Assembly (NCBI GenBank): GCA_026014485.1 | Contig: JAOZIE010000008.1 | Span: 224,716 to 288,715 of the forward strand | Origin: Candidatus Bathyarchaeota archaeon | Lineage (GTDB): Archaea; Thermoproteota; Bathyarchaeia; Bathyarchaeales; Bathycorpusculaceae | Direction: 5' to 3' | Length of the DNA: 64,000 nt | In this document: piece after piece, positions 34,444-43,770 of the stretch | Layout: each line of letters opens with the position of its first letter | Position numbering within the stretch: the stretch's first letter is position 1 | Program-made: the position numbers and the translations under genes | Notes under the pieces: model-generated | The model's input: the letters and a program-made list of their open reading frames with translations, nothing else | Database searches by the model: none | Told to the model about the DNA's origin: nothing

Positions 34444-34707
34444 GCGAGTGCACCTAAAGTGTGTTATTGAATCGGCGGTTTTAGAGTTTTGCCTAATAAC
34501 CCCGTTTGCAGCAGCCATGTATTGTGACTTGCAAGTGGCTTTTCTGCTAAGAATCGGCGTTGATTTGTCTTCTGAAGAGTTTTCCGCGGGAAAGTTTGTT
34601 CTGAAAGGCTGGGCAACAGATTTTTCTGGTTTTGCTTCATGGAGTACAGTTTTACACAAAACTTTATTATGTCGCCTAGCGTTTTGCATGATAAAAGGTG
34701 CAACAAA

Positions 34708-35631
34708 TTGAAACTAGGCACATACGTGTTCCTACCCGAGAAAGCTGAAGGTTTTGACTTTCACCTGTTCCGCGTAAAGCCTGAAGTGGGCAGACGCATG
34801 CCCCCGATGGAAGACATGTACAGCAACATCGCCATCTTCGGAGACAACGTCACGGCGCGCAACCACCCCGACTGGATTTCGCAGTCCCCATTGGGTCCAG
34901 CTTGGCGTACAAACAACAACTTCAACGTCCGCTGGGACATCCTCTGCCACACGCAGCCTGAACACAGAGCAGAACAGCTAGACTACATTGAAGACGTCGC
35001 AAGGCACAGCCCAGGCGTTTGGCTCAACAGCATTCACTTTGCAGAGCACGGACACTGCACTTGCCCCCGATGCAACGAGAAATGGAAGAAAAGCGGCTTA
35101 AGCTGGCTAGAATGGAGACGCAAAGAAGTCACTGATTACATGGCGGAAGTAAGCGAACGAGTACGCGACCGCGCCAAGAAGAAATTCGTCATCGGCGTCC
35201 TTCCAGACCCCGTCACAAGCTATGAGCGCTTCGGCATAAACTTCGACGACCTTGCCCCATTAACCGACGAGTTCCTTGTGGTCATGTTCAGCAAGAACTA
35301 CGCTACTCCATGGTACTGGGAAATGCTCACCCGCGCCTTCAAGAAGACATTCAAAGAAGTGCCGCTGAACATTTCACTTTACGTTTTCGGTCCAGGCGAC
35401 GACCCCAAAGAGGTTCCCACGCCAACCGAGTTGCTCACGGTCTCTACGCGTATGACACGCGCAGGAGTAGACAACATCCTCTACCTGACGGAGAAAGCCA
35501 GTCAGATGAAGGACTTCCAGAAGGCAGCCATCGAAAAGGTGGAACTTCGCGAACGCCTCAGAAGCTACGGCGGACAGCGGGTTCAGGAATACCTTGACAT
35601 GGTTAAGGGCTGGGAGAAAATCGTAAAGTAA
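34708..35631 (+). CDS. TIM-barrel-like glycoside hydrolase-related protein
   Basis: About 307 aa from TTG 34708, where the family-like sequence begins (LKLGTYVFLPEKAEG); frames up to 34639 are possible. The alternation of strands and helices fits a TIM barrel, with the segment WLNSIHFAEHGHCTCPRCNEKW in the middle. Barrel proteins with a Cys-x-x-Cys after this strand are known among hypothetical glycoside-hydrolase-like families, so a sugar-related role is a weak inference. There is no signal peptide, so it would be cytoplasmic. Its catalytic residues cannot be fixed. It is the last gene before the RGWLPKE operon, convergent with it. Confidence 0.55.
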   Translation: MKLGTYVFLPEKAEGFDFHLFRVKPEVGRRMPPMEDMYSNIAIFGDNVTARNHPDWISQSPLGPAWRTNNNFNVRWDILCHTQPEHRAEQLDYIEDVARHSPGVWLNSIHFAEHGHCTCPRCNEKWKKSGLSWLEWRRKEVTDYMAEVSERVRDRAKKKFVIGVLPDPVTSYERFGINFDDLAPLTDEFLVVMFSKNYATPWYWEMLTRAFKKTFKEVPLNISLYVFGPGDDPKEVPTPTELLTVSTRMTRAGVDNILYLTEKASQMKDFQKAAIEKVELRERLRSYGGQRVQEYLDMVKGWEKIVK

Positions 35632-35729: not shown

Positions 35730-36287
35730 CTATGCTCTGGCTTTGAGGGCGATGTGCACGGTTGGGGATGTACCTGTTAATCTGATTTTCACGTTGTTTA
35801 GGTAGAGTTCTGGCGTTGGCAGGTTAACGACTGCTTCTTGCCCTCCGATTGCCTTCAGCAGGTATTTGAGTTGGGAGGTTCCGCCATAACCAGCTGTTTG
35901 GTAAATATTTGTGCCATTTAAGAGTAGAAATGCGTTTTCGTCGAGTGGGTCAATGATTTGAACTTCCCGTTTGAACTCTGGAAGGACATATCCATGCCAG
36001 CCCACAGTGACTTTTACTTCGATGGTGTCGCCAACGTTTGCTGATGTGCTGTTCGTTGTTTTTTCAAAGTAAGCTGCCGTTATGTCCGCCTGTGGGTTGC
36101 TGTAGCGCAGATACGTTTGTGCGCCAAAGAATGTGGCGACCACAAGAACAGAAATAGCTGCTATGGTTACGAATGCTTTCAAGTATGGCTTTGACCGCGG
36201 TTTTGGCGGTTCATGCGCGCATATGACGCTTGACTCTTTCGGGAGCCAACCTCTAACAAGGCTCTTCAGGTGCCTCTTAGAGTTCAT
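35730..36287 (-). CDS. RGWLPKE protein 10: single TM plus exported domain
   Basis: 185 aa from ATG 36287. The motif RGWLPKE is at about 11-17, after MNSKRHLKSL. One membrane helix (about 38-58) is followed by roughly 125 residues predicted outside, beta-rich and Gly/Thr-containing (GDTIEVKVTVGWHG, then AGGYGG-like turns), suggesting an Ig-type or receptor-like domain. It is the only member with a large exported domain. It overlaps the stop of its upstream neighbour by 11 nt, so translation is coupled. Last gene of the operon. No homologous family recognised. Confidence 0.75.
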   Translation of the reverse strand: MNSKRHLKSLVRGWLPKESSVICAHEPPKPRSKPYLKAFVTIAAISVLVVATFFGAQTYLRYSNPQADITAAYFEKTTNSTSANVGDTIEVKVTVGWHGYVLPEFKREVQIIDPLDENAFLLLNGTNIYQTAGYGGTSQLKYLLKAIGGQEAVVNLPTPELYLNNVKIRLTGTSPTVHIALKARA

Positions 36288-36921
36288 TTTTTGTTCCTCT
36301 GTTAGGTTGCGTTTGCTTCTTGGCGTACTCATACAGCAACAGGTTAACCAAAACCAACACAACAGCAAAGCCCCCCCAAAACGCGACGGTTGATGGTGTG
36401 CTCCACGCAGTTACATCTGTGAAAACGTGAATGGCAAGGAAAACGCTGAGCATGACGGCATTTGCGGTGGTGGCGGCAATTTTGAAGGCGTTTCTTCCTC
36501 TGTCAGTTTGGATTCTTGGTGTGAACCATTTTGATGTTTTGTACAGTGTGCCTTCAGCGTTGAGTCTTAGTCCCCACAAAATGAAAGACACCGAAGAGGA
36601 CACAATGAGAACTAGACCTGTAATCAGCATAGTCCACCCTTCCAACGTCGCAGGCGCTGTGTACCCCCACCCCGGATTAGCCTTCGGAGTATACCACTGC
36701 GGCGAAATATAATAGGGGATAAGTATGAAAAATAGCCCCGCCAAGAGCGTCGTGATTGCTGCTCCGCCATAAACTCGCGTAGGCAAAGCTTTCCGCTTTG
36801 GCTTCACCTGAACCATTCGGTTTTTCGGTTGATTTGGAAAGGCTACATCTTTTGGAAGCCAGCCTCGAATACCTGCTTCCCTTTGTTTTTTTCGGTCCTC
36901 GTTTTTAACTGGTTTTTTCAA
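36277..36921 (-). CDS. RGWLPKE protein 9: four-TM membrane protein
   Basis: About 214 aa from TTG 36921, chosen because GAGGGAG stands just before it and because codons further up (to 36999) are not protein-like. The basic start (LKKPVKNEDRKKQREAG) ends in IRGWLPKD at about 18-25; four hydrophobic segments follow near 47-70, 88-115, 140-160 and 175-200. Between the second and third lies KTSKWFTPRIQTDRGRNAF, probably cytoplasmic. No further domain. Overlaps the next gene by 11 nt and starts 84 nt after its predecessor. Confidence 0.75.
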   Translation of the reverse strand: MKKPVKNEDRKKQREAGIRGWLPKDVAFPNQPKNRMVQVKPKRKALPTRVYGGAAITTLLAGLFFILIPYYISPQWYTPKANPGWGYTAPATLEGWTMLITGLVLIVSSSVSFILWGLRLNAEGTLYKTSKWFTPRIQTDRGRNAFKIAATTANAVMLSVFLAIHVFTDVTAWSTPSTVAFWGGFAVVLVLVNLLLYEYAKKQTQPNRGTKNEL

Positions 36922-37005
36922 ACGGTTCTCCCTCTTTTTTTCGAGATTTTGTTTCCAGCAAATGTGGCCCGCCGTGGATGCGGCTTTGCAGTGAGTCAAG
37001 CATTT

Positions 37006-37323
37006 TCATGCTTCTGTTTCCCTTTGCTGCTTTTCTTTGCGCCTAGCCCAAACAGAAACAGCCCATATCATGGTCCAGGTCATTCCACATACCGCGGTAG
37101 GCCAGATATATGCGCCAACCCCTTTGGTTAAACCCCCTATGCTTCCAACAATGAGAAGCAATCCGCTTGCAACCGCTCCCACCATGACAGCTCTTGCCAT
37201 CCAGCGAACCATAGGTGAAAACCTTTGTTCCGCTGCTTTTTGGGCAATGGGGTACGTTGGCTCTTTCGGAAGCCAACCACGAACTCGGTTTTTTAAGCCA
37301 TCTAAATACTTGAGCGACTCCAC
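37006..37323 (-). CDS. RGWLPKE protein 8: two-TM membrane protein
   Basis: 105 aa from GTG 37323 with AGAGGTGAT a few nt before it. RGWLPKEPTYP at about 15-25 follows MESLKYLDGLKNRV; two hydrophobic helices (about 40-62 and 68-92) and a highly charged end (RRKEKQQRETEA). Both ends are probably in the cytoplasm. The gene begins 4 nt after the stop of protein 7. Beyond the N-terminal motif it does not resemble its neighbours. Confidence 0.75.
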   Translation of the reverse strand: MESLKYLDGLKNRVRGWLPKEPTYPIAQKAAEQRFSPMVRWMARAVMVGAVASGLLLIVGSIGGLTKGVGAYIWPTAVCGMTWTMIWAVSVWARRKEKQQRETEA

Positions 37324-37327
37324 AACA

Positions 37328-37645
37328 TCACCTCTTTTTGCATTTTCCCTTTAGATTTGCTCGGTTATGATTTCTTGAAAGCATAACGCTTGAAAATACA
37401 GCAACAAAACCTCCCACCACTCCTGCGGCGAACGATGCATAAGACCCTGCACCTAGAACTTGCAGTGCGCCCATTGTGATGGACACGGCAGCGAATGCAG
37501 CAGCAAAAACGCCGATGTAGACTGCCTTTTCTGGTTTTTTGTTTTGTTGATGCACTTTGTTTCTTCTGTTTTGGAGATTCGGAAAAGACGGCTCCTTAGG
37601 AAGCCAGCCTCGAATCTGATTCTGCAAGGTCTTCTTAGCGTTCAT
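37328..37645 (-). CDS. RGWLPKE protein 7: two-TM membrane protein
   Basis: 105 aa. MNAKKTLQNQIRGWLPKEP is the best representative of the shared N-terminus, with SFP after it. A hydrophilic linker (about 22-40, rich in N, Q, K) precedes two hydrophobic helices (about 42-62 and 68-90). GAGGGGAAAG lies just before the ATG as a strong ribosome-binding site. The tail is basic (KGKCKKR). Confidence 0.78.
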   Translation of the reverse strand: MNAKKTLQNQIRGWLPKEPSFPNLQNRRNKVHQQNKKPEKAVYIGVFAAAFAAVSITMGALQVLGAGSYASFAAGVVGGFVAVFSSVMLSRNHNRANLKGKCKKR

Positions 37646-37702
37646 GTTCTTTCCCCTCGGTTGTTCTATAGTTTTTAGTTCAGTTTCTTGCGTGTTTTTT
37701 TG

Positions 37703-38179
37703 TTAATATAGCCCCGCTTTTTTTCCAACTTTGTCGCCGATGAAGGCTCCTGCCCCGACTAAAGTGACGAAGAGCAGCAGAGAGTATGGAAACAGAAGCG
37801 GACGGCCCAAGATGCTGACTGCTATGGCGGGAATCGCGAACCCACACAATAACCCCGAGCATAACACAAAGACCCTTCTGCTCTCCTTTGGGTGCCTCTT
37901 GTAGTATTCTCGACCGTAGGCAAGGTAAAAGGCTACGGCAACCCCTGCATATATTACCGTTGCAACTAGGCGGTTGACGACGTTTTCCGCTATAAAAGGC
38001 ATGTAAACTGTAACAACCAAGACTACTATAAGCGATAACACCGCGATTACGCCTATGTACCGCAGAACTTTCAAAGCCTTAGATGGGGCTTCAGCCGCCT
38101 TTACCGTGTTGCTTGGTGGATTACTCTCTTTTGGAAGCACCCCTCGAATGTGCCCTTGGAGGTGTTTTTTGAGGTTCAT
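37703..38179 (-). CDS. RGWLPKE protein 6: four-TM membrane protein, Trp replaced
   Basis: 158 aa. The motif reads RGVLPKES (residues 12-19) after MNLKKHLQGHI, so the otherwise conserved Trp is Val. Four hydrophobic helices follow (about 42-64, 70-90, 103-122 and 126-148), with a charged loop (GREYYKRHPKESRR) between the second and third. Its ATG overlaps the stop of protein 5 by 4 nt. Confidence 0.75.
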   Translation of the reverse strand: MNLKKHLQGHIRGVLPKESNPPSNTVKAAEAPSKALKVLRYIGVIAVLSLIVVLVVTVYMPFIAENVVNRLVATVIYAGVAVAFYLAYGREYYKRHPKESRRVFVLCSGLLCGFAIPAIAVSILGRPLLFPYSLLLFVTLVGAGAFIGDKVGKKAGLY

Positions 38180-38511
38180 GTTTTCACTTCTCCATCTGTT
38201 GTGTGTGCTTGCTTTTTGAAGTGCCTGTACGAAATGAAGTTGGCTAAAATCATTACAAGTACAAGGGCACTAAATGCGGTGACGGATACTGCGGTGCTCT
38301 TGCTGAATGGGTCAACTAAGAAGCGGATGCCCCCGACAACGGCAAAAACAATTGCGTTAATCTTGATTGATGCTTTGAAGAATCTATTTTCCCAATCTTT
38401 CGCTTCTTTATGTCTAAGCCTTGACGCTTTGCTTAATGGCAGACGTGGCATAGCCTGCTCTTTGGGTAGCCAACCGCGAATTCGATCCCCAACTTGTTTC
38501 TTTACATTCAT
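38176..38511 (-). CDS. RGWLPKE protein 5: two-TM membrane protein
   Basis: About 111 aa from ATG 38511; ATG 38520 adds three residues. MNVKKQVGDRIRGWLPKEQ, then a basic stretch (LSKASRLRHKEAKDWENRFFK) and two hydrophobic helices (about 50-68 and 76-98), ending SYRHFKKQAHTTDGEVKT. The stop overlaps the start of protein 6 by 4 nt, and the gene begins 9-18 nt after protein 4. Confidence 0.75.
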   Translation of the reverse strand: MNVKKQVGDRIRGWLPKEQAMPRLPLSKASRLRHKEAKDWENRFFKASIKINAIVFAVVGGIRFLVDPFSKSTAVSVTAFSALVLVMILANFISYRHFKKQAHTTDGEVKT

Positions 38512-38529
38512 GGATTTCATGTACCCCTG

Positions 38530-39057
38530 TTATCTGTAGGGTTCAAAGTTTCTTCGTTTGCCAATCAAGTACCCTATTAATGCGCCTGCCATAATGGGTA
38601 AACCTAGCAGAAGAATTACAGTAGGCCAATATCCTACGTAGCTGCTTAATGCTTTCATACGTTCCGCGCCAAAGATGAAAAATACCAAGACAAAGCTAAT
38701 TGGGAAGGCTATTAATGCAGGACCTATTATGAATGCGGCTCGGTTTGCAATTTGGATAGCCTTTGTTGCACGGTATTTTGTTTGGATATGCCAGATTACG
38801 AAGGGCAACGGAAGAAATAGAAGAAGTACAAGAACGCCGCCAAGCAATGTAGTCTCGTTAATGTAGGACAGGAAATACAAAATGACCTGTATGGCTGCCA
38901 GAATGATATAAGATATGGCAAGCAGAGTCAAATAGTGTCTCCATGACCTAGACGCTTCCAGCGGCTCGCAATTGTTTTTCAGATTGCTGCTTGCAGGCTT
39001 AGGCTCTTTTGGAATCCAGCCTCTGAGACGATTTTCCAACGTTTTTAGAGCGTTCAT
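38530..39057 (-). CDS. RGWLPKE protein 4: four-TM membrane protein
   Basis: 175 aa from ATG 39057. The longer open frame up to 39318 runs through protein 3 in another frame and is not real. MNALKTLENRLRGWIPKEP, then a polar linker, then four hydrophobic helices (about 40-62, 65-88, 105-128 and 138-160) with a basic loop (HIQTKYRATKAIQIANR). The ATG overlaps the stop of protein 3 by 4 nt. Confidence 0.77.
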   Translation of the reverse strand: MNALKTLENRLRGWIPKEPKPASSNLKNNCEPLEASRSWRHYLTLLAISYIILAAIQVILYFLSYINETTLLGGVLVLLLFLPLPFVIWHIQTKYRATKAIQIANRAAFIIGPALIAFPISFVLVFFIFGAERMKALSSYVGYWPTVILLLGLPIMAGALIGYLIGKRRNFEPYR

Positions 39058-39356
39058 GTTATGGCGCTCCTTTTCTTGCTCTGCCTCAGAACGGCAACAA
39101 CTGCGACAACGGATATGCAGACAACCAAAAGCACGACAAAAACGTACAGTCCTATTCCTGAGAGTAGCCCTAAACCTAAAGCCGCGTCTAAACTGCCCAA
39201 TAATGAGCCTGCAAAACCCATAACAAAAATCAAAATTCCGAAGCGAACGCCTGCTACTGGATTTTGGGGTTTTTTCGTTTGTTGATATTTTGATACCCTT
39301 AATTCTTCTGGCGCCCAACCTCTGGTTTGTAGTTCGGTGTTTCTCTTGTTTGTCAT
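39054..39356 (-). CDS. RGWLPKE protein 3: divergent motif, three hydrophobic segments
   Basis: 100 aa. The motif is RGWAPEEL (about 12-19), the most divergent copy, after MTNKRNTELQT. A very hydrophobic, glycine-rich body (about 36-92) can hold two to three helices; the end is basic (RQSKKRSAIT). It is the first gene after the ABC permease, 88 nt downstream of it, with nothing recognisable in that gap. Confidence 0.7.
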   Translation of the reverse strand: MTNKRNTELQTRGWAPEELRVSKYQQTKKPQNPVAGVRFGILIFVMGFAGSLLGSLDAALGLGLLSGIGLYVFVVLLVVCISVVAVVAVLRQSKKRSAIT

Positions 39357-39444
39357 GCTTTCAACTCCCGAGTCAGCTTACAAATGGCATGGCTTAACTT
39401 TGGTCGAAAGATGCTTGTGACAAACAACTCAAAAAATAGTGTAG

Positions 39445-40180
39445 TCATAGAATCTTCAGCACCAGGTTTTCTTTATTTAGTCTGTTTTTGAGGTAGGGTG
39501 AGATTGATAGTAAGCTAAGAGCCAGTAGCCCTTCAACACCGGCAATGAGCAGATTGCTGGAAGCGACAAACCCCGTTAAGTTTTGTAGGTATGGTACCGC
39601 CATAAATATGCCATAACTTAGGAAAAATGACATAACCAAAGTTACTGAACCAAGTCTGGGCGATTTAAGGAATAAACAGCCGATAACCTCTACCAAACCA
39701 ATTCCGAGCAGTAACAAAATGATAAATTGAAAAATTGAAAGAATATCCGGCAAGAATAGGGTATGATAAATAAACGAGTTAGCTACACCAACAAGCACTA
39801 AAACCATTACAATTGTAGCCAGGTACAGTGAATAAAACTGTTGATAGGGTCTTGCCTGTTACGATGTCTTTTAAGGTTATAGACGTAGCTAAATCGCCTT
39901 CTAGAGTTGTTTTCAGCCTGTGTGATTGATAGCTTTGGTTCAAGAAAAAGAAGCTTGCTAACAAAAAGAGAGGCAGCGAGAATACCGAGAAAATGCTGTT
40001 GAGTTTTGTCTGCATGAAAGCAGCATCAACCGTAATTCCGCTTGTGTTTAAAAGGGCAATTACTCCAAAAATTAAGCCGTAGGCGAAAATGAATATATTC
40101 ATACGCAGCAGGGAAGATTTTCTTGCTTTCACATCCTGCACTTCCCGCCAGAAAATAGCCTTAGCTTCATTTCGTAACAT
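39445..40180 (-). pseudogene. ABC-2 type permease with a frame disruption
   Basis: Two overlapping frames together make one permease. The first (40180 down to 39779) holds MLRNEAKAIFWREVQDVKARK, a helix, and ends in non-membrane sequence after GKTLSTVLF. The second (39445 up to about 39840) resumes with YSLYLATIVMVLVLVGVANSF and four more helices. The switch falls in an AT-rich stretch near 39825-39845. Joined, the product would be about 245 residues with six helices, normal for a small NatB/ABC-2 permease. It may be a real mutation, an assembly error, or a translational frameshift; neighbours are intact. It overlaps the ATPase stop by 14 nt. Confidence 0.7.
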
Positions 40181-41114
40181 CAACCGCCGCCTCAACTTTT
40201 TTCTTGTCTTCCCTTATTATATCCAAATAGACCTCCTCTAAACTGCTTTGAATAATGCTTGAACTAAACACCTTCACACCTTCTTTGATGAGCACTTCCA
40301 GCAAGTCGGGTGCGTTTTCGTAACTTTTCAGGGTAATCAGCAGCCTATTCGCAGTTGCTGCTTTAAAGTCGGATACAAAACCCAGCCTTGACAGTATCTT
40401 TTCAGTAACAGCTAATTTATCGACAGATACCTCAAATAAGGGCACATTATGTCTACTTCGCAGGTTACCAAGCGAATCGTTGACTATTATCCTGCCTTTT
40501 TTTAGAATAATTATCTGTGTAGCTATCTTCTGGATTTCCTCCAGATCATGGGAGCTTAGAAGGATCGTTTTTTCCAGGTTCTCAAGCTTCATTATGGCCT
40601 CTCTAACGATGATTCGGGCTTCAGGGTCTAAACCCGATGTTATTTCATCAAAAATAAGCAGTTCTGGGTCATGCAGTAAGGATTTAGCGATTGCGAGTTT
40701 TTGGCGCATACCTTTTGAAAAGGTGCCGACTTTGTCGTTGCGTCTGTCCCAGAGGTTCATGAATTCTAATAGTTCTTTGACTCTGCCCTCTTTATCGCGA
40801 ATATTGTAAATTCGGCTGTAGTAGCTGAGGTTTACTTCGGCGCTCAGATTATCGTAGAAGCCTGCGTTTTCTAATACGACTCCTACCCTTCGCCGGTCTG
40901 CCTCGGATGCCTTCTTATCAAACAAAAATGCGTTGCCCGAAGTCGGTTTTAGTAAATCAAGGATAATTCGTATTGTTGTGGTTTTTCCTGCGCCATTTGG
41001 TCCTAGGTACCCTAAAGTTTCGCCTTTTTTTAGGGTAAAGCTGACATCGGTTAAAATGTTACGTTCACCGATTGATTTGGTGACATTCTTTAAAACCAAG
41101 ATGTCTTCTACCAT
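40167..41114 (-). CDS. ABC transporter ATP-binding protein (CcmA/NatA type)
   Basis: 315 aa from ATG 41114. Walker A GPNGAGKTT, Q-loop region GVVLENAGF, signature TFSKGMRQKL (a variant of LSGGQ), Walker B LLIFDEITSGLD and the switch His in SSHDLEEI. The C-terminal 90 residues form the extra domain common in ABC-2 exporters of the DrrA/NatA kind. It powers the permease encoded directly downstream. It sits inside the RGWLPKE operon, overlapping protein 2 by 7 nt, which implies a shared task; the substrate is unknown. Confidence 0.9.
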   Translation of the reverse strand: MVEDILVLKNVTKSIGERNILTDVSFTLKKGETLGYLGPNGAGKTTTIRIILDLLKPTSGNAFLFDKKASEADRRRVGVVLENAGFYDNLSAEVNLSYYSRIYNIRDKEGRVKELLEFMNLWDRRNDKVGTFSKGMRQKLAIAKSLLHDPELLIFDEITSGLDPEARIIVREAIMKLENLEKTILLSSHDLEEIQKIATQIIILKKGRIIVNDSLGNLRSRHNVPLFEVSVDKLAVTEKILSRLGFVSDFKAATANRLLITLKSYENAPDLLEVLIKEGVKVFSSSIIQSSLEEVYLDIIREDKKKVEAAVDVTK

Positions 41115-41662
41115 GAAGCACCCGCTCTCTTTCTTAGGGGTCTTGTTTGTTTTATGCGAACCAGCAGAATGATGGATGATACTCCGATGATTATGCCTGT
41201 GGCAGTGAAATACAGGCTCCAACTGCGTTCTGGTGCATAAGCTGGAGATAGTGCTCCCTGTATTCCCCACACAACCGCCAAAGTAACGCATATACTGACC
41301 CACATTTTCAATTTGTATCCGCTCGCTTTATGAGGCGTCGTTTGCTGTTGGGTTGGTAGATTCATGTCTTTTGGCACCCAGCCTAAATCGACTATCTTAA
41401 AGCGGTTTTTCTGTTTTCTTTTGATAGAGAGAACGCTGGCAAGGTCAGTTACGACTATTGCAGCAATCACCCTGCTCAGGGGGTAATGGAAGAGGAAATA
41501 ATTGGCTGCAAGAGAGGCAAGCGTTATTACCAGTGGCGCCATCAAAAGGGGCTTCCAGCTCACTAATTGAGGAAGTTTGCGTTCTTTGAATCCTCTCATG
41601 GTGTCACTTGGTACATTTGCTTTTTTAGGAATCCAGCTGTGAAAATGATTTTTTAAGCCCAC
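41108..41662 (-). CDS. RGWLPKE protein 2: tandem module with two motifs
   Basis: 184 aa. It holds the motif twice: FHSWIPKKANVP at about 7-18 and, after two hydrophobic helices (about 38-58 and 63-82), DLGWVPKDMNLP at about 93-104, again followed by two helices (about 120-140 and 148-168). The protein looks like two single modules fused head to tail, which defines the unit as motif, short linker and two helices. The basic segment before the second motif (KRKQKNRFK) puts both motifs on the cytoplasmic side. Starts 3 nt after protein 1 and overlaps the ATPase start by 7 nt. Confidence 0.77.
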   Translation of the reverse strand: MGLKNHFHSWIPKKANVPSDTMRGFKERKLPQLVSWKPLLMAPLVITLASLAANYFLFHYPLSRVIAAIVVTDLASVLSIKRKQKNRFKIVDLGWVPKDMNLPTQQQTTPHKASGYKLKMWVSICVTLAVVWGIQGALSPAYAPERSWSLYFTATGIIIGVSSIILLVRIKQTRPLRKRAGASW

Positions 41663-41665
41663 TTT

Positions 41666-42166
41666 TTAGTCCCTCCGTGGAGCCAACCAGTTGAGAAGTT
41701 TTTTAGAGAGCTCTTTTTTACCACAAACGTAAGCTGCCACCGCAAACAAAAGAGGCACATGAACCGCTGATAGTAATCCAATCATAACGGCTCTCAAAAG
41801 AAAACTAGAGGGCACAGAAAAAATAGTCAGTGCAACTAAGATGCCGCCTAAACTGATAACCGCCAGTTGCAGAGCCACCTCAAGCTTAGGATTCAACTCT
41901 TTGCCCAGCTGCGCCAAAGCATCCAGCGCCAAAGCACCACCCCAAACGGATGCAGTCCAAAGAAAAAGCACGCCCACAACGTCGTCCCTGAGAAGATTGA
42001 TGGCAGATAGAATTATCCAGCCCACTGTTATCAGCAGTCTTCTTTTTGGAAGCTGAATTTTTTGTGGGGCTCTAACTTTAGGGTTAACTATAGAATAACT
42101 TGGCAGTCTCGGCTCTTTTGGAACCCAACCTCTAATCTGGTCTTTCCAGCTCTTTCTTACATTCAT
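41666..42166 (-). CDS. RGWLPKE protein 1: four-TM membrane protein
   Basis: 166 aa. MNVRKSWKDQIRGWVPKEP, a proline-rich linker (RLPSYSIVNPKVRAPQK), then four hydrophobic helices (about 45-63, 66-85, 95-118 and 122-145) and a basic end (SKKLLNWLAPRRD), which oddly carries a second LNWLAPR echo of the motif. Its ATG overlaps the stop of the HTH gene by 4 nt, so it is translated from the same message. Confidence 0.77.
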   Translation of the reverse strand: MNVRKSWKDQIRGWVPKEPRLPSYSIVNPKVRAPQKIQLPKRRLLITVGWIILSAINLLRDDVVGVLFLWTASVWGGALALDALAQLGKELNPKLEVALQLAVISLGGILVALTIFSVPSSFLLRAVMIGLLSAVHVPLLFAVAAYVCGKKELSKKLLNWLAPRRD

Positions 42167-42645
42167 GCTCTCAACTCTGGAATAAGCTTAGAGAATATTT
42201 GGTGTGCTAGTCTGGATGGGTGAATGTTGTCTGTGTTTTCTATTTCTATGCCTCTTTCTTTGGCGATGTCTAGAAGGTATTGTTTTATTTGGTTGAGAAA
42301 TGCGGGGTCGGTGACTTCTTCGGGGTTGTCGTGCCAGTACCACACTTTGATGCCGTGGCTGGTGGTGTAGGTGACGACGGCTTTGCGTTTGAGTGCGGGG
42401 TGGTAGCCGAGTAGCACGGCGTTTTTGGCGTTGAGTCGGGTGACTTGGAGTTCGTTGACTTGTGCTACTTCCAGAAGTGCCTTGGAGATTTTTGCCTCTG
42501 CTGCCAGCCGCGTCTGGTTGACGTATTGTCTGCTGGTTTTGAGTTTTTCAGCTATGGCTGCGATGGAGTTTCCCGCGGTGGTTAGGGACCAGACTGCCAT
42601 CTGTTTGGGGCTGAGTGGGGTGGCGAAGGAGCAGTTTGGTTTCAT
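42163..42645 (-). CDS. Tfx-like helix-turn-helix protein, first gene of RGWLPKE operon
   Basis: 160 aa. Residues about 11-60 form a sigma-region-4/Tfx-like HTH (LSPKQMAVWSLTTAGNSIAAIAEKLKT, recognition helix SRQYVNQTRLAAEAKI). The C-terminal 95 residues are alpha/beta (KAVVTYTTSHGIKVWYWHD) and may sense a ligand. It is the promoter-proximal gene and overlaps protein 1 by 4 nt, so autoregulation of the operon is likely though not shown. Archaeal Tfx binds near a molybdenum-responsive operon in Methanothermobacter; only the fold, not that role, is transferred here. Confidence 0.7.
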   Translation of the reverse strand: MKPNCSFATPLSPKQMAVWSLTTAGNSIAAIAEKLKTSRQYVNQTRLAAEAKISKALLEVAQVNELQVTRLNAKNAVLLGYHPALKRKAVVTYTTSHGIKVWYWHDNPEEVTDPAFLNQIKQYLLDIAKERGIEIENTDNIHPSRLAHQIFSKLIPELRA

Positions 42646-42674
42646 ACAGCATCATGTAAACACCTAAGTATTTA

Positions 42675-42686
42675 CAAATATTTAAG
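42675..42686 (-). promoter_or_regulatory. TATA box of the RGWLPKE operon
   Basis: Minus-strand CTTAAATATTTG ends 30 nt before the ATG at 42645; it is the only good promoter I see for the whole 6.9-kb gene run. Confidence 0.6.
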
Positions 42687-42819: not shown

Positions 42820-43770
42820 CTAATGCCGTTGTGGGACTCTGGAGTTTTTGGTATGCCTAAAAATCAGGATACCTGCCGCTACCACCGCTGCAACCGCTAC
42901 GACGATGAGCAGGTAGTTATAGTTCCCTGTTGACGCTGACGGGGTAGCTTCGGGCTCTTCCTGCTGGTTGCTTAAGCCGCTGGGGGCGGGCGTCGGGGTG
43001 GTTTGGTTTTGCTGTTGTGGCGAGGGGGGTGCAGTTGGGGGACTTTGTGTATTTGTCGGAGTTGGCTGTGCAGTTTGGGTTGGCTGGACAGAGCGGGTTG
43101 TCTGTGGTGTTTCGGTAGCTGTGGGTGCGGGGGTGGGGCTGGGGGTTTGTGTTGGAATTGCGGTCGGCGTGGGGGTAACCGTTGGCTGCAGCGTTGGAGC
43201 AGGAGTAGGCGGAGGTGTTGAATGAATTGTCGGTGTCGGTGAGGGCGTTTGGGTTGGTTGCGGAGTAACGATTATTCCAGGCAGGGTCACGTCGATTTCT
43301 GTTATCAGCCCAATCCAGTAGCTGCCTGGCCATCCTGGAAGAATCAGCTTTGGAGATTGGAGGGGCGTGTTATCGAATTCGTAGGCGATTATCTGCTGCT
43401 TTAGCTCAGGGGTTATGCCGACGTTTACGTGGTACCCGTCGGATGCATAGAAGTCAATGTTTGCCGCTGCATAGTTTACCCCAGCCAAATCCAAGATGTA
43501 GTCCAATTTGACGCCCCCCCAATCAGCCACGCCCACAAACCTGCCTTCACAGTACAACTCTGCATTGACAACGGTTTTAGGCATCACCGTCAAATCGCTC
43601 ATGGAAATGTCGAGGGGTTGCGAAACTGCGCCGACAACTCGAAAGCTCCACTCGCTACCGCTTTGAGCAGAAACAGTAACGGGAACTGCACTAAAAGGTC
43701 CAGCGAAGCTGAATGTGATTAGCGCAAACGTCAAGGCGAAAGCAACGGTTGTCTTGAAAGTTTTGTTCAT
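42820..43770 (-). CDS. Anchored surface protein with molybdopterin-binding-like domain
   Basis: 316 aa. Signal peptide (about 1-36, cleavage near VSAQSG), a domain of about 130 residues with VVNAELYCEGRFVGVADWGGVKLDYIL, which matches the core of sulfite-oxidase-type molybdopterin folds (Cys plus WxGVxL), then a Thr/Pro-rich stalk of about 110 residues and a C-terminal helix (LLIVVAVAAVVAAGILIF) with a basic tail. It should be fixed to the outside of the membrane. The domain is shorter than catalytic sulfite oxidases, so cofactor binding is uncertain. The stalk and anchor resemble those of the metallophosphoesterase at 30410. Confidence 0.75.
   Translation of the reverse strand: MNKTFKTTVAFALTFALITFSFAGPFSAVPVTVSAQSGSEWSFRVVGAVSQPLDISMSDLTVMPKTVVNAELYCEGRFVGVADWGGVKLDYILDLAGVNYAAANIDFYASDGYHVNVGITPELKQQIIAYEFDNTPLQSPKLILPGWPGSYWIGLITEIDVTLPGIIVTPQPTQTPSPTPTIHSTPPPTPAPTLQPTVTPTPTAIPTQTPSPTPAPTATETPQTTRSVQPTQTAQPTPTNTQSPPTAPPSPQQQNQTTPTPAPSGLSNQQEEPEATPSASTGNYNYLLIVVAVAAVVAAGILIFRHTKNSRVPQRH

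What the first reader, a model, noticed from the sequence alone, without database searches (positions are those of the whole stretch)
35730..42645. Operon of ten membrane proteins sharing only an N-terminal RGWLPKE motif, with a Tfx-like HTH and an ABC transporter
All genes lie on one strand with 4-11-nt overlaps or short gaps. Ten products begin with a basic segment of about 10 residues (typical MNxKKxL) and then RGWLPKEP or a close variant, followed by otherwise unrelated bodies with one, two, three or four membrane helices; one has a large exported domain. A conserved N-terminal tag on different membrane bodies suggests a docking, sorting or processing signal on the cytoplasmic side, perhaps read by the ABC transporter or an unknown partner. 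It faintly recalls the GWCPN start of Methanosarcina DUF1673-type membrane proteins (from memory, unverified). I know of no described system like this.
Basis: partly seen in the sequence, partly recalled or inferred. Interest (0 to 1): 0.88.

Follow-up and report, generated by a model that had tools for sequence, protein, structure and literature searches.

The report
Membrane proteins sharing a regulator-linked tail
In Bathyarchaeia, a small DNA-binding protein appears to control only itself and a set of otherwise different membrane proteins that all carry the same short inner tail, which looks like a previously undescribed archaeal way of linking the cell membrane to a gene switch.

Summary
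Ten minus-strand genes carry the motif (11 copies; one gene has two), usually 11 residues after the start and before differing membrane bodies. In this genome, exact matches to the main form lie only in this cluster. The constant partner is the HTH gene, not the ABC transporter. Orthologous HTH genes are usually followed, typically with a 4-nt overlap, by RGW-motif genes (1 to 10). Divergent HTH paralogues carrying CxxC...C are followed by membrane proteins with a Cys version of the tail (WCPQP, GWCPG, ACPKPP) and interchangeable ectodomains (NosD, PQQ propeller, Ig-like). No cross-pairing in 63 pairs. A palindrome, TGTAAR-N10-YTTACA, sits between TATA box and start codon of the HTH gene (42655-42676) and is unique in the 2.37 Mb genome. 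Across 24 genomes its type I form marks HTH operons and six RGW operons without a local HTH, two found blind from the operator. So a Tfx-like regulator and its tail-bearing membrane proteins form a closed circuit. That the tail docks on the regulator's C-terminal domain is inferred (about 0.6). It works like sigma/anti-sigma (RsgI) signalling but belongs to neither. Methanosarcina DUF1673 ('MGWCP motif') may be a cousin; untestable here.

The parts
42655..42676 (.). Operator palindrome TGTAAATA-N6-TGTTTACA on the minus strand (consensus TGTAAR-N10-YTTACA)
   Evidence: Only exact match in the 2.37 Mb genome; same position in 22 of 28 type I and 19 of 38 type II HTH promoters with at most 1 mismatch, shuffled sequences 0.1%
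42679..42685 (-). TATA-box-like TTAAATA directly upstream of the operator
   Evidence: Sequence; conserved in the upstream regions of orthologues
42163..42645 (-). HTH regulator, 160 aa: Tfx-like HTH (about residues 10-63) plus a C-terminal alpha/beta domain with no family match
   Evidence: TIGR00721 E 1e-3, below cut-off; AF2 model pLDDT 86, pTM 0.77; orthologues in 24 genomes of the class
41666..42166 (-). Motif gene 1, IRGWVPKEP tail, 3-4 TM; overlaps the HTH gene by 4 nt
41108..41662 (-). Motif gene 2 with two motif copies (HSWIPKK, LGWVPKD), each before hydrophobic segments; GTG start
40167..41114 (-). ABC ATPase (DrrA-like); accessory, not conserved in the module
   Evidence: PF00005 3.5e-28; present near only some clusters
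39445..40195 (-). ABC permease-like membrane gene, broken by a frameshift near 39800
39054..39356 (-). Motif gene 3, TRGWAPEE tail, 2 TM
38530..39057 (-). Motif gene 4, LRGWIPKEP tail, 4 TM
38176..38511 (-). Motif gene 5, IRGWLPKEQ tail, 2 TM
37703..38179 (-). Motif gene 6, IRGVLPKES tail, 4 TM
37328..37645 (-). Motif gene 7, IRGWLPKEP tail, 2 TM
37006..37323 (-). Motif gene 8, VRGWLPKEP tail, 1-2 TM; GTG start
36277..36921 (-). Motif gene 9, IRGWLPKDV tail after a longer basic N-terminus, 4 TM
35730..36287 (-). Motif gene 10, VRGWLPKES tail, 1 TM, exported beta-sandwich (Ig-like) domain
   Evidence: AF2 model pLDDT 77 with low-confidence tail; Foldseek to Ig-like/adhesin folds, best E 6e-5

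Best explanation
This is a closed, self-regulated membrane-to-gene circuit. The HTH protein (42163-42645) is a local transcription factor, probably a repressor, that binds the palindrome at 42655-42676 between the TATA box and the start codon. In relatives the same palindrome also stands in front of separate RGW operons. Its regulon is essentially itself plus membrane proteins carrying the RGWLPKE tail. The tail, a short basic amphipathic segment ending in GW-x-P, lies on the cytoplasmic side and is the docking site for the regulator's C-terminal alpha/beta domain. The different membrane bodies or outer domains sense different things and change how the tail holds the regulator, so many membrane inputs converge on one switch. 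In the ancestral form (type II) the regulator has three cysteines and the tail one; together they could form one metal or redox site, and all four appear to have been lost together in the RGW branch. Shown by sequence: module, conserved operator, its distribution, pairing of tail type with regulator type. Inferred: DNA binding to this site, physical docking, sensing, sign of regulation, metal site.
For: (1) HTH orthologues (at least 56% identity) in 24 of 257 Bathyarchaeia genomes; the strict motif occurs in 16 genomes, all among those 24, 0 of the other 233 (Fisher 7e-20). (2) 21 type I HTHs are directly followed by GWxP-tail genes, 32 three-Cys HTHs by WC/AC-tail genes, 10 type III by IKPP-tail genes, no cross-pairing; 13 genomes hold two or three types side by side, each with its matching tail. 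(3) Operator; unique in this genome. In 25 genomes 37 sites with at most 1 mismatch: 24 at type I HTH operons, 6 at RGW operons without a local HTH, 7 elsewhere against 12 for the reversed pattern; the RGW genes of L279 and L286 were found only from the operator. (4) All 11 exact type II sites in 14 genomes lie at type II HTH promoters (coordinates). (5) Tail divergence follows the regulator's C-terminal domain (r 0.71; partial 0.55) and not its DNA-binding part (partial -0.07). (6) Type II tails often precede one TM helix and swappable outer domains: NosD 8e-46, PQQ 1e-40, CarboxypepD_reg 5e-32. (7) Charge distribution puts the tail in the cytoplasm in 86 of 88.
Against: No physical interaction was tested. 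The Cys co-loss is one event on the tree (type I monophyletic within type II), so it is not replicated, and type III HTHs keep three Cys while their tails have none. Linked genes share a history, so mirror-tree correlation is expected in part without contact. A tail could serve another partner while the HTH only controls expression. One regulator for ten membrane proteins is unusual for a sensor pair. Two separate RGW operons (L076, L128) have no operator in front, and in G460 the operator stands before an extra first gene.
Confidence: 0.6

Rival explanations
1. The tail is a docking, sorting or membrane-insertion tag read by some other partner (insertase, scaffold or ABC system); the HTH merely controls expression of the tagged set.
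For: The tag bearers are membrane proteins with the tag on the cytoplasmic side; the HTH and its operator would then only define co-expression.
Against: No other gene is constant: the ABC pair is in only some clusters and no peptidase or insertase recurs. Tail type changes with the regulator's subtype, not with genome; up to three tail types coexist in one genome, each with its own regulator. A general reader would not predict that.
Confidence: 0.22
2. The operon is an ABC-linked envelope stress or peptide-resistance cassette; the small membrane proteins are accessory subunits that bind the transporter through the tail.
For: ABC ATPase and permease inside this operon, and ABC genes beside RGW genes in L081, L127, L128 and in type II L152. 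PMC4158269 describes ABC pairs with variable membrane proteins in archaeal dark-matter islands.
Against: Most clusters have no ABC genes; here the permease is frameshifted; PADLOC finds nothing convincing.
Confidence: 0.08
3. The shared N-terminus is a duplicated start cassette (promoter-proximal or translation-initiation sequence) spread by recombination, with no function in the protein.
For: Clustered tandem genes, constant distance from the start codon.
Against: Synonymous positions are free while G, W and P are nearly invariant; an internal copy in motif gene 2; unlinked copies keep the motif; the motif persists in divergent forms across Bathyarchaeia.
Confidence: 0.05

Closest known systems
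Tfx family regulators, e.g. EnfR TON_1525 (PDB 8hno, PMC10570040) and MTH0916 (1nr3)
   Same: Tfx-like HTH, long third helix, C-terminal alpha/beta head; EnfR binds a pseudo-palindrome in a promoter as a dimer and represses.
   Different: Similarity covers only the HTH and scores far below the family cut-off; the C-terminal domain has no match; strict linkage to tail-bearing membrane proteins was not found described for Tfx.
RsgI / sigma-I and other sigma / membrane anti-sigma pairs (e.g. PMC12203970)
   Same: Cytoplasmic N-terminal element, one TM helix, interchangeable outer domains, gene next to its regulator; the Tfx-type HTH resembles sigma region 4 (PMC10570040).
   Different: Archaeal, no sigma factor; the cytoplasmic element is about 20 residues rather than a folded domain; one regulator can go with ten membrane partners; the operator is found only at the module's own genes.
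DUF1673 / arCOG06827 of Methanosarcina ('MGWCP motif', PMC4158269; SC.00027 in PMC4390880)
   Same: Expanded archaeal membrane proteins with a GWCP motif (N-terminal placement is from memory), like the LGWCPG and LKWCPN tails of type II partners.
   Different: No DUF1673 profile match in this genome or in type II partners. Whether they sit beside a related HTH could not be checked.
Transmembrane transcription regulators (PMC10269533)
   Same: Couples membrane state to transcription.
   Different: There HTH and TM lie in one chain; here they are separate proteins apparently linked by a tail.

Membership tests
Tfx family (TIGR00721) | Full-length profile score over the curated cut-off (60.25 bits) | tested here: not met
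   19 bits, HTH region only, residues 9-67
Tfx family (TIGR00721) | HTH + long alpha3 stem + alpha/beta head | tested here: inconclusive
   AF2 model shows this order; Foldseek to 8hnp E 0.14, TM 0.32-0.36
DUF1673 (PF07895) | Profile match over cut-off | tested here: not met
   No match in own genome at E<=10; among 14 control genomes 6 ring, one over the cut-off, Methanosarcina acetivorans being among the six; no match for GWCPG-type partners
DUF1673 (PF07895) | Neighbouring HTH with CxxC...C and TGTAAR operator (a prediction of this report, not part of the family definition) | not testable with these tools
   No Methanosarcina genome could be reached
Sigma / RsgI-type anti-sigma pair | Tail-TM-ectodomain partner encoded beside an HTH regulator | tested here: met
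   Type II partners and motif gene 10
Sigma / RsgI-type anti-sigma pair | Regulator is a sigma factor; partner has a folded anti-sigma domain | tested here: not met
   HTH is Tfx-like; no anti-sigma Pfam domain reported
Zinc-binding anti-sigma (ZAS) | HxxxCxxC in the cytoplasmic part of the membrane protein | tested here: not met
   Type I tails lack a conserved Cys; type II tails share a single conserved Cys
Transmembrane transcription regulator | HTH and TM helix in one protein | tested here: not met
   Separate genes in the intact modules examined

The most novel reading that the evidence does not exclude
A new archaeal signalling principle: a repertoire of up to ten or more differing membrane proteins reports to one transcription factor through a shared ~20-residue cytoplasmic tail, with an ancestral metal or redox site built from three regulator cysteines and one tail cysteine; the circuit regulates only itself, and the Methanosarcina DUF1673 expansions belong to the same system.
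Probability: 0.3. Interest if true: 0.93.

Novelty: new variant of a known kind. Interest (0 to 1): 0.85.

Why it matters
Few ways are known by which archaea carry information across the membrane to a gene, other than two-component systems and single-chain membrane regulators (general knowledge; PMC10269533). Here a short tail on differing membrane proteins is tied, by gene order, operator and regulator subtype, to one family of small regulators across Bathyarchaeia, an abundant and largely uncultured group. If the docking step holds, it gives an archaeal counterpart of sigma/anti-sigma receptors, lets one predict which 'dark matter' membrane proteins are sensors, and offers a way to find them by tail and operator alone (two RGW operons were found that way here).

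Tried and rejected
Known domain for the bodies: nothing over cut-off. Spread on viruses or plasmids: the strict motif in IMG/VR gives six chance hits without a membrane protein; a search with one type II HTH in phages and plasmids gives none. Motif as common short sequence: in the inspected hits outside Bathyarchaeia it lies in short chance frames or inside a soluble protein. Defence system: PADLOC nothing convincing. DUF1673 membership: no profile match. A universal Cys-Cys pairing: broken by type III, so kept only as an ancestral type II feature. Larger regulon: the operator is unique in the genome and two-mismatch sites are at control level. Structure of the HTH C-terminal domain: no PDB match at E 1e-3 or better.
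Full report
What is there. The window is part of a 2.37 Mb archaeal assembly (G000 contig 23); named relatives that carry the motif in clusters are Candidatus Bathyarchaeota and Bathycorpusculum. On the minus strand from 42645 down to 35730 lie an HTH gene, ten genes with an N-terminal RGWLPKE-like motif, and an ABC ATPase with a permease-like gene broken by a frameshift. Motif gene 2 has two copies, each before hydrophobic segments. All seven exact DNA matches to the main form of the motif in the genome fall in this cluster.

The motif. In 88 homologous genes from this and related loci the tryptophan is residue 14 in 67; R-G-W-x-P is nearly fixed, then K/Q, E/D, P, preceded by a basic stretch with hydrophobic residues at -7 and -3 from W, an amphipathic pattern. 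Codon third positions are free, so the protein is selected. The bodies form 24 groups by blastp, the largest of 36 members, with one to ten predicted membrane helices. Charge puts the tail on the cytoplasmic side. The AF2 model of motif gene 10 has a short helix at 3-12, a low-confidence linker, a long TM helix and a beta sandwich resembling Ig-like folds.

The constant partner is the HTH. Of 257 Bathyarchaeia genomes, 24 have a close orthologue (at least 56% identity, against 39% or less for the other matches). A strict motif pattern occurs in 16 genomes, all among those 24. In most loci the first motif gene overlaps the end of the HTH gene by 4 nt. The number of motif genes is 1 to 10 per locus. 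ABC genes accompany only a few.

The wider family. About 40 more distant HTH paralogues were examined. In type II the C-terminal domain carries C-x2-C-x(5-7)-C (invariant in 17 aligned), and the next gene encodes a membrane protein with a related tail containing Cys: WCPQPP, WNWCPKP, LGWCPG, ACPKPP, ACPFAP. Many of these proteins have one membrane helix near the N-terminus and very different outer domains: NosD beta helix, PQQ propeller, CarboxypepD_reg/Ig-like, and weakly GH43-like. A third HTH type, with KLCPxCPKExEC, precedes a ~240-residue protein with IIKPP. There is no cross-pairing in 63 pairs, and 13 genomes carry two or three types, each with its own tail. The tree puts the RGW type (no Cys in regulator, none in tail) as one clade (100/100) inside the Cys type, next to the LGWCPG branch (92/82). 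So the four cysteines appear to have been lost together once; this is suggestive, not replicated, and type III shows that regulator cysteines can exist without a tail cysteine.

The operator. Upstream regions of the HTH genes share TTAAATA followed by TGTAAA-N10-TTTACA just before the start codon. In the window it is 42655-42676. TGTAAR-N10-YTTACA fits type I and most type II promoters; type III does not have it (the control there is a simple shuffle). It occurs once in the 2.37 Mb genome. In 25 genomes (24 with a type I HTH from the class plus G246, which has none of these sites), 37 sites of the type I form with at most one mismatch were found. By coordinates, 24 are at type I HTH operons, six at RGW operons that have no local HTH (L079, L082, L132, L135, L279, L286), seven elsewhere; the reversed pattern gives 12. 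L279 and L286 were unknown before this scan. The perfect type II form gave 11 sites in 14 genomes, all at type II HTH promoters. The position between TATA box and start fits a repressor (inference from archaeal promoter anatomy and from EnfR, PMC10570040).

Mechanism. Directly supported: one regulator, one operator, and a set of sites confined to the regulator and tail-bearing membrane proteins, even when unlinked; tail sequence follows the regulator's C-terminal domain rather than its DNA-binding part. Inferred: the regulator binds this operator; the tail binds the C-terminal domain and membrane proteins thereby tell the regulator about their state or ligand. Sign of regulation, ligands and a metal site are open. 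Alternatives (general docking tag, ABC accessory, neutral start cassette) explain less, but the first cannot be excluded without a binding test.

Comparison. It works like sigma/anti-sigma receptors such as RsgI (PMC12203970), but has no sigma factor and no known anti-sigma domain. The HTH resembles Tfx only in about the first 60 residues and misses the family cut-off. DUF1673 is described as a Methanosarcina membrane protein expansion with an MGWCP motif; the resemblance to type II tails is a lead, not a test. Searches of the open-access library found no paper describing such a module in Bathyarchaeia, which does not exclude one in journals not held.

Noticed in passing
window 39445-40195: ABC permease-like open reading frame is split by a frameshift near 39800; assembly error or decay cannot be told apart here.
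   Followed up: partly
window 41108-41662: Motif gene 2 looks like an in-frame fusion of two motif-plus-TM units, so the motif also persists in an internal loop.
   Followed up: partly
L207-L210, L213-L218: Third module type: HTH with KLCPxCPKExEC followed by a conserved ~240 aa two-TM protein with IIKPPxxxVTSGxIFKPSKA; its upstream regions lack the type I/II operator and show a GTAAATCTTTAC element instead.
   Followed up: partly
L220 (G112:C3:6000-13000): A decayed HTH gene whose last ~35 residues are in frame with a WCQKP-tail membrane protein, an apparent stop-loss fusion.
   Followed up: no
L122 (G460:C147): An extra small membrane or secreted protein gene lies between the operator and the HTH gene, as if captured by the promoter.
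   Followed up: no
window 34639-35631: A plus-strand gene flanking the cluster is also found at the end of the clusters in G482 and G483 (L121, L120), so the locus looks syntenic in the genus.
   Followed up: no
window 42820-43770: Upstream same-strand gene: apparently exported protein with a long Pro/Thr-rich linker and a C-terminal TM anchor.
   Followed up: no
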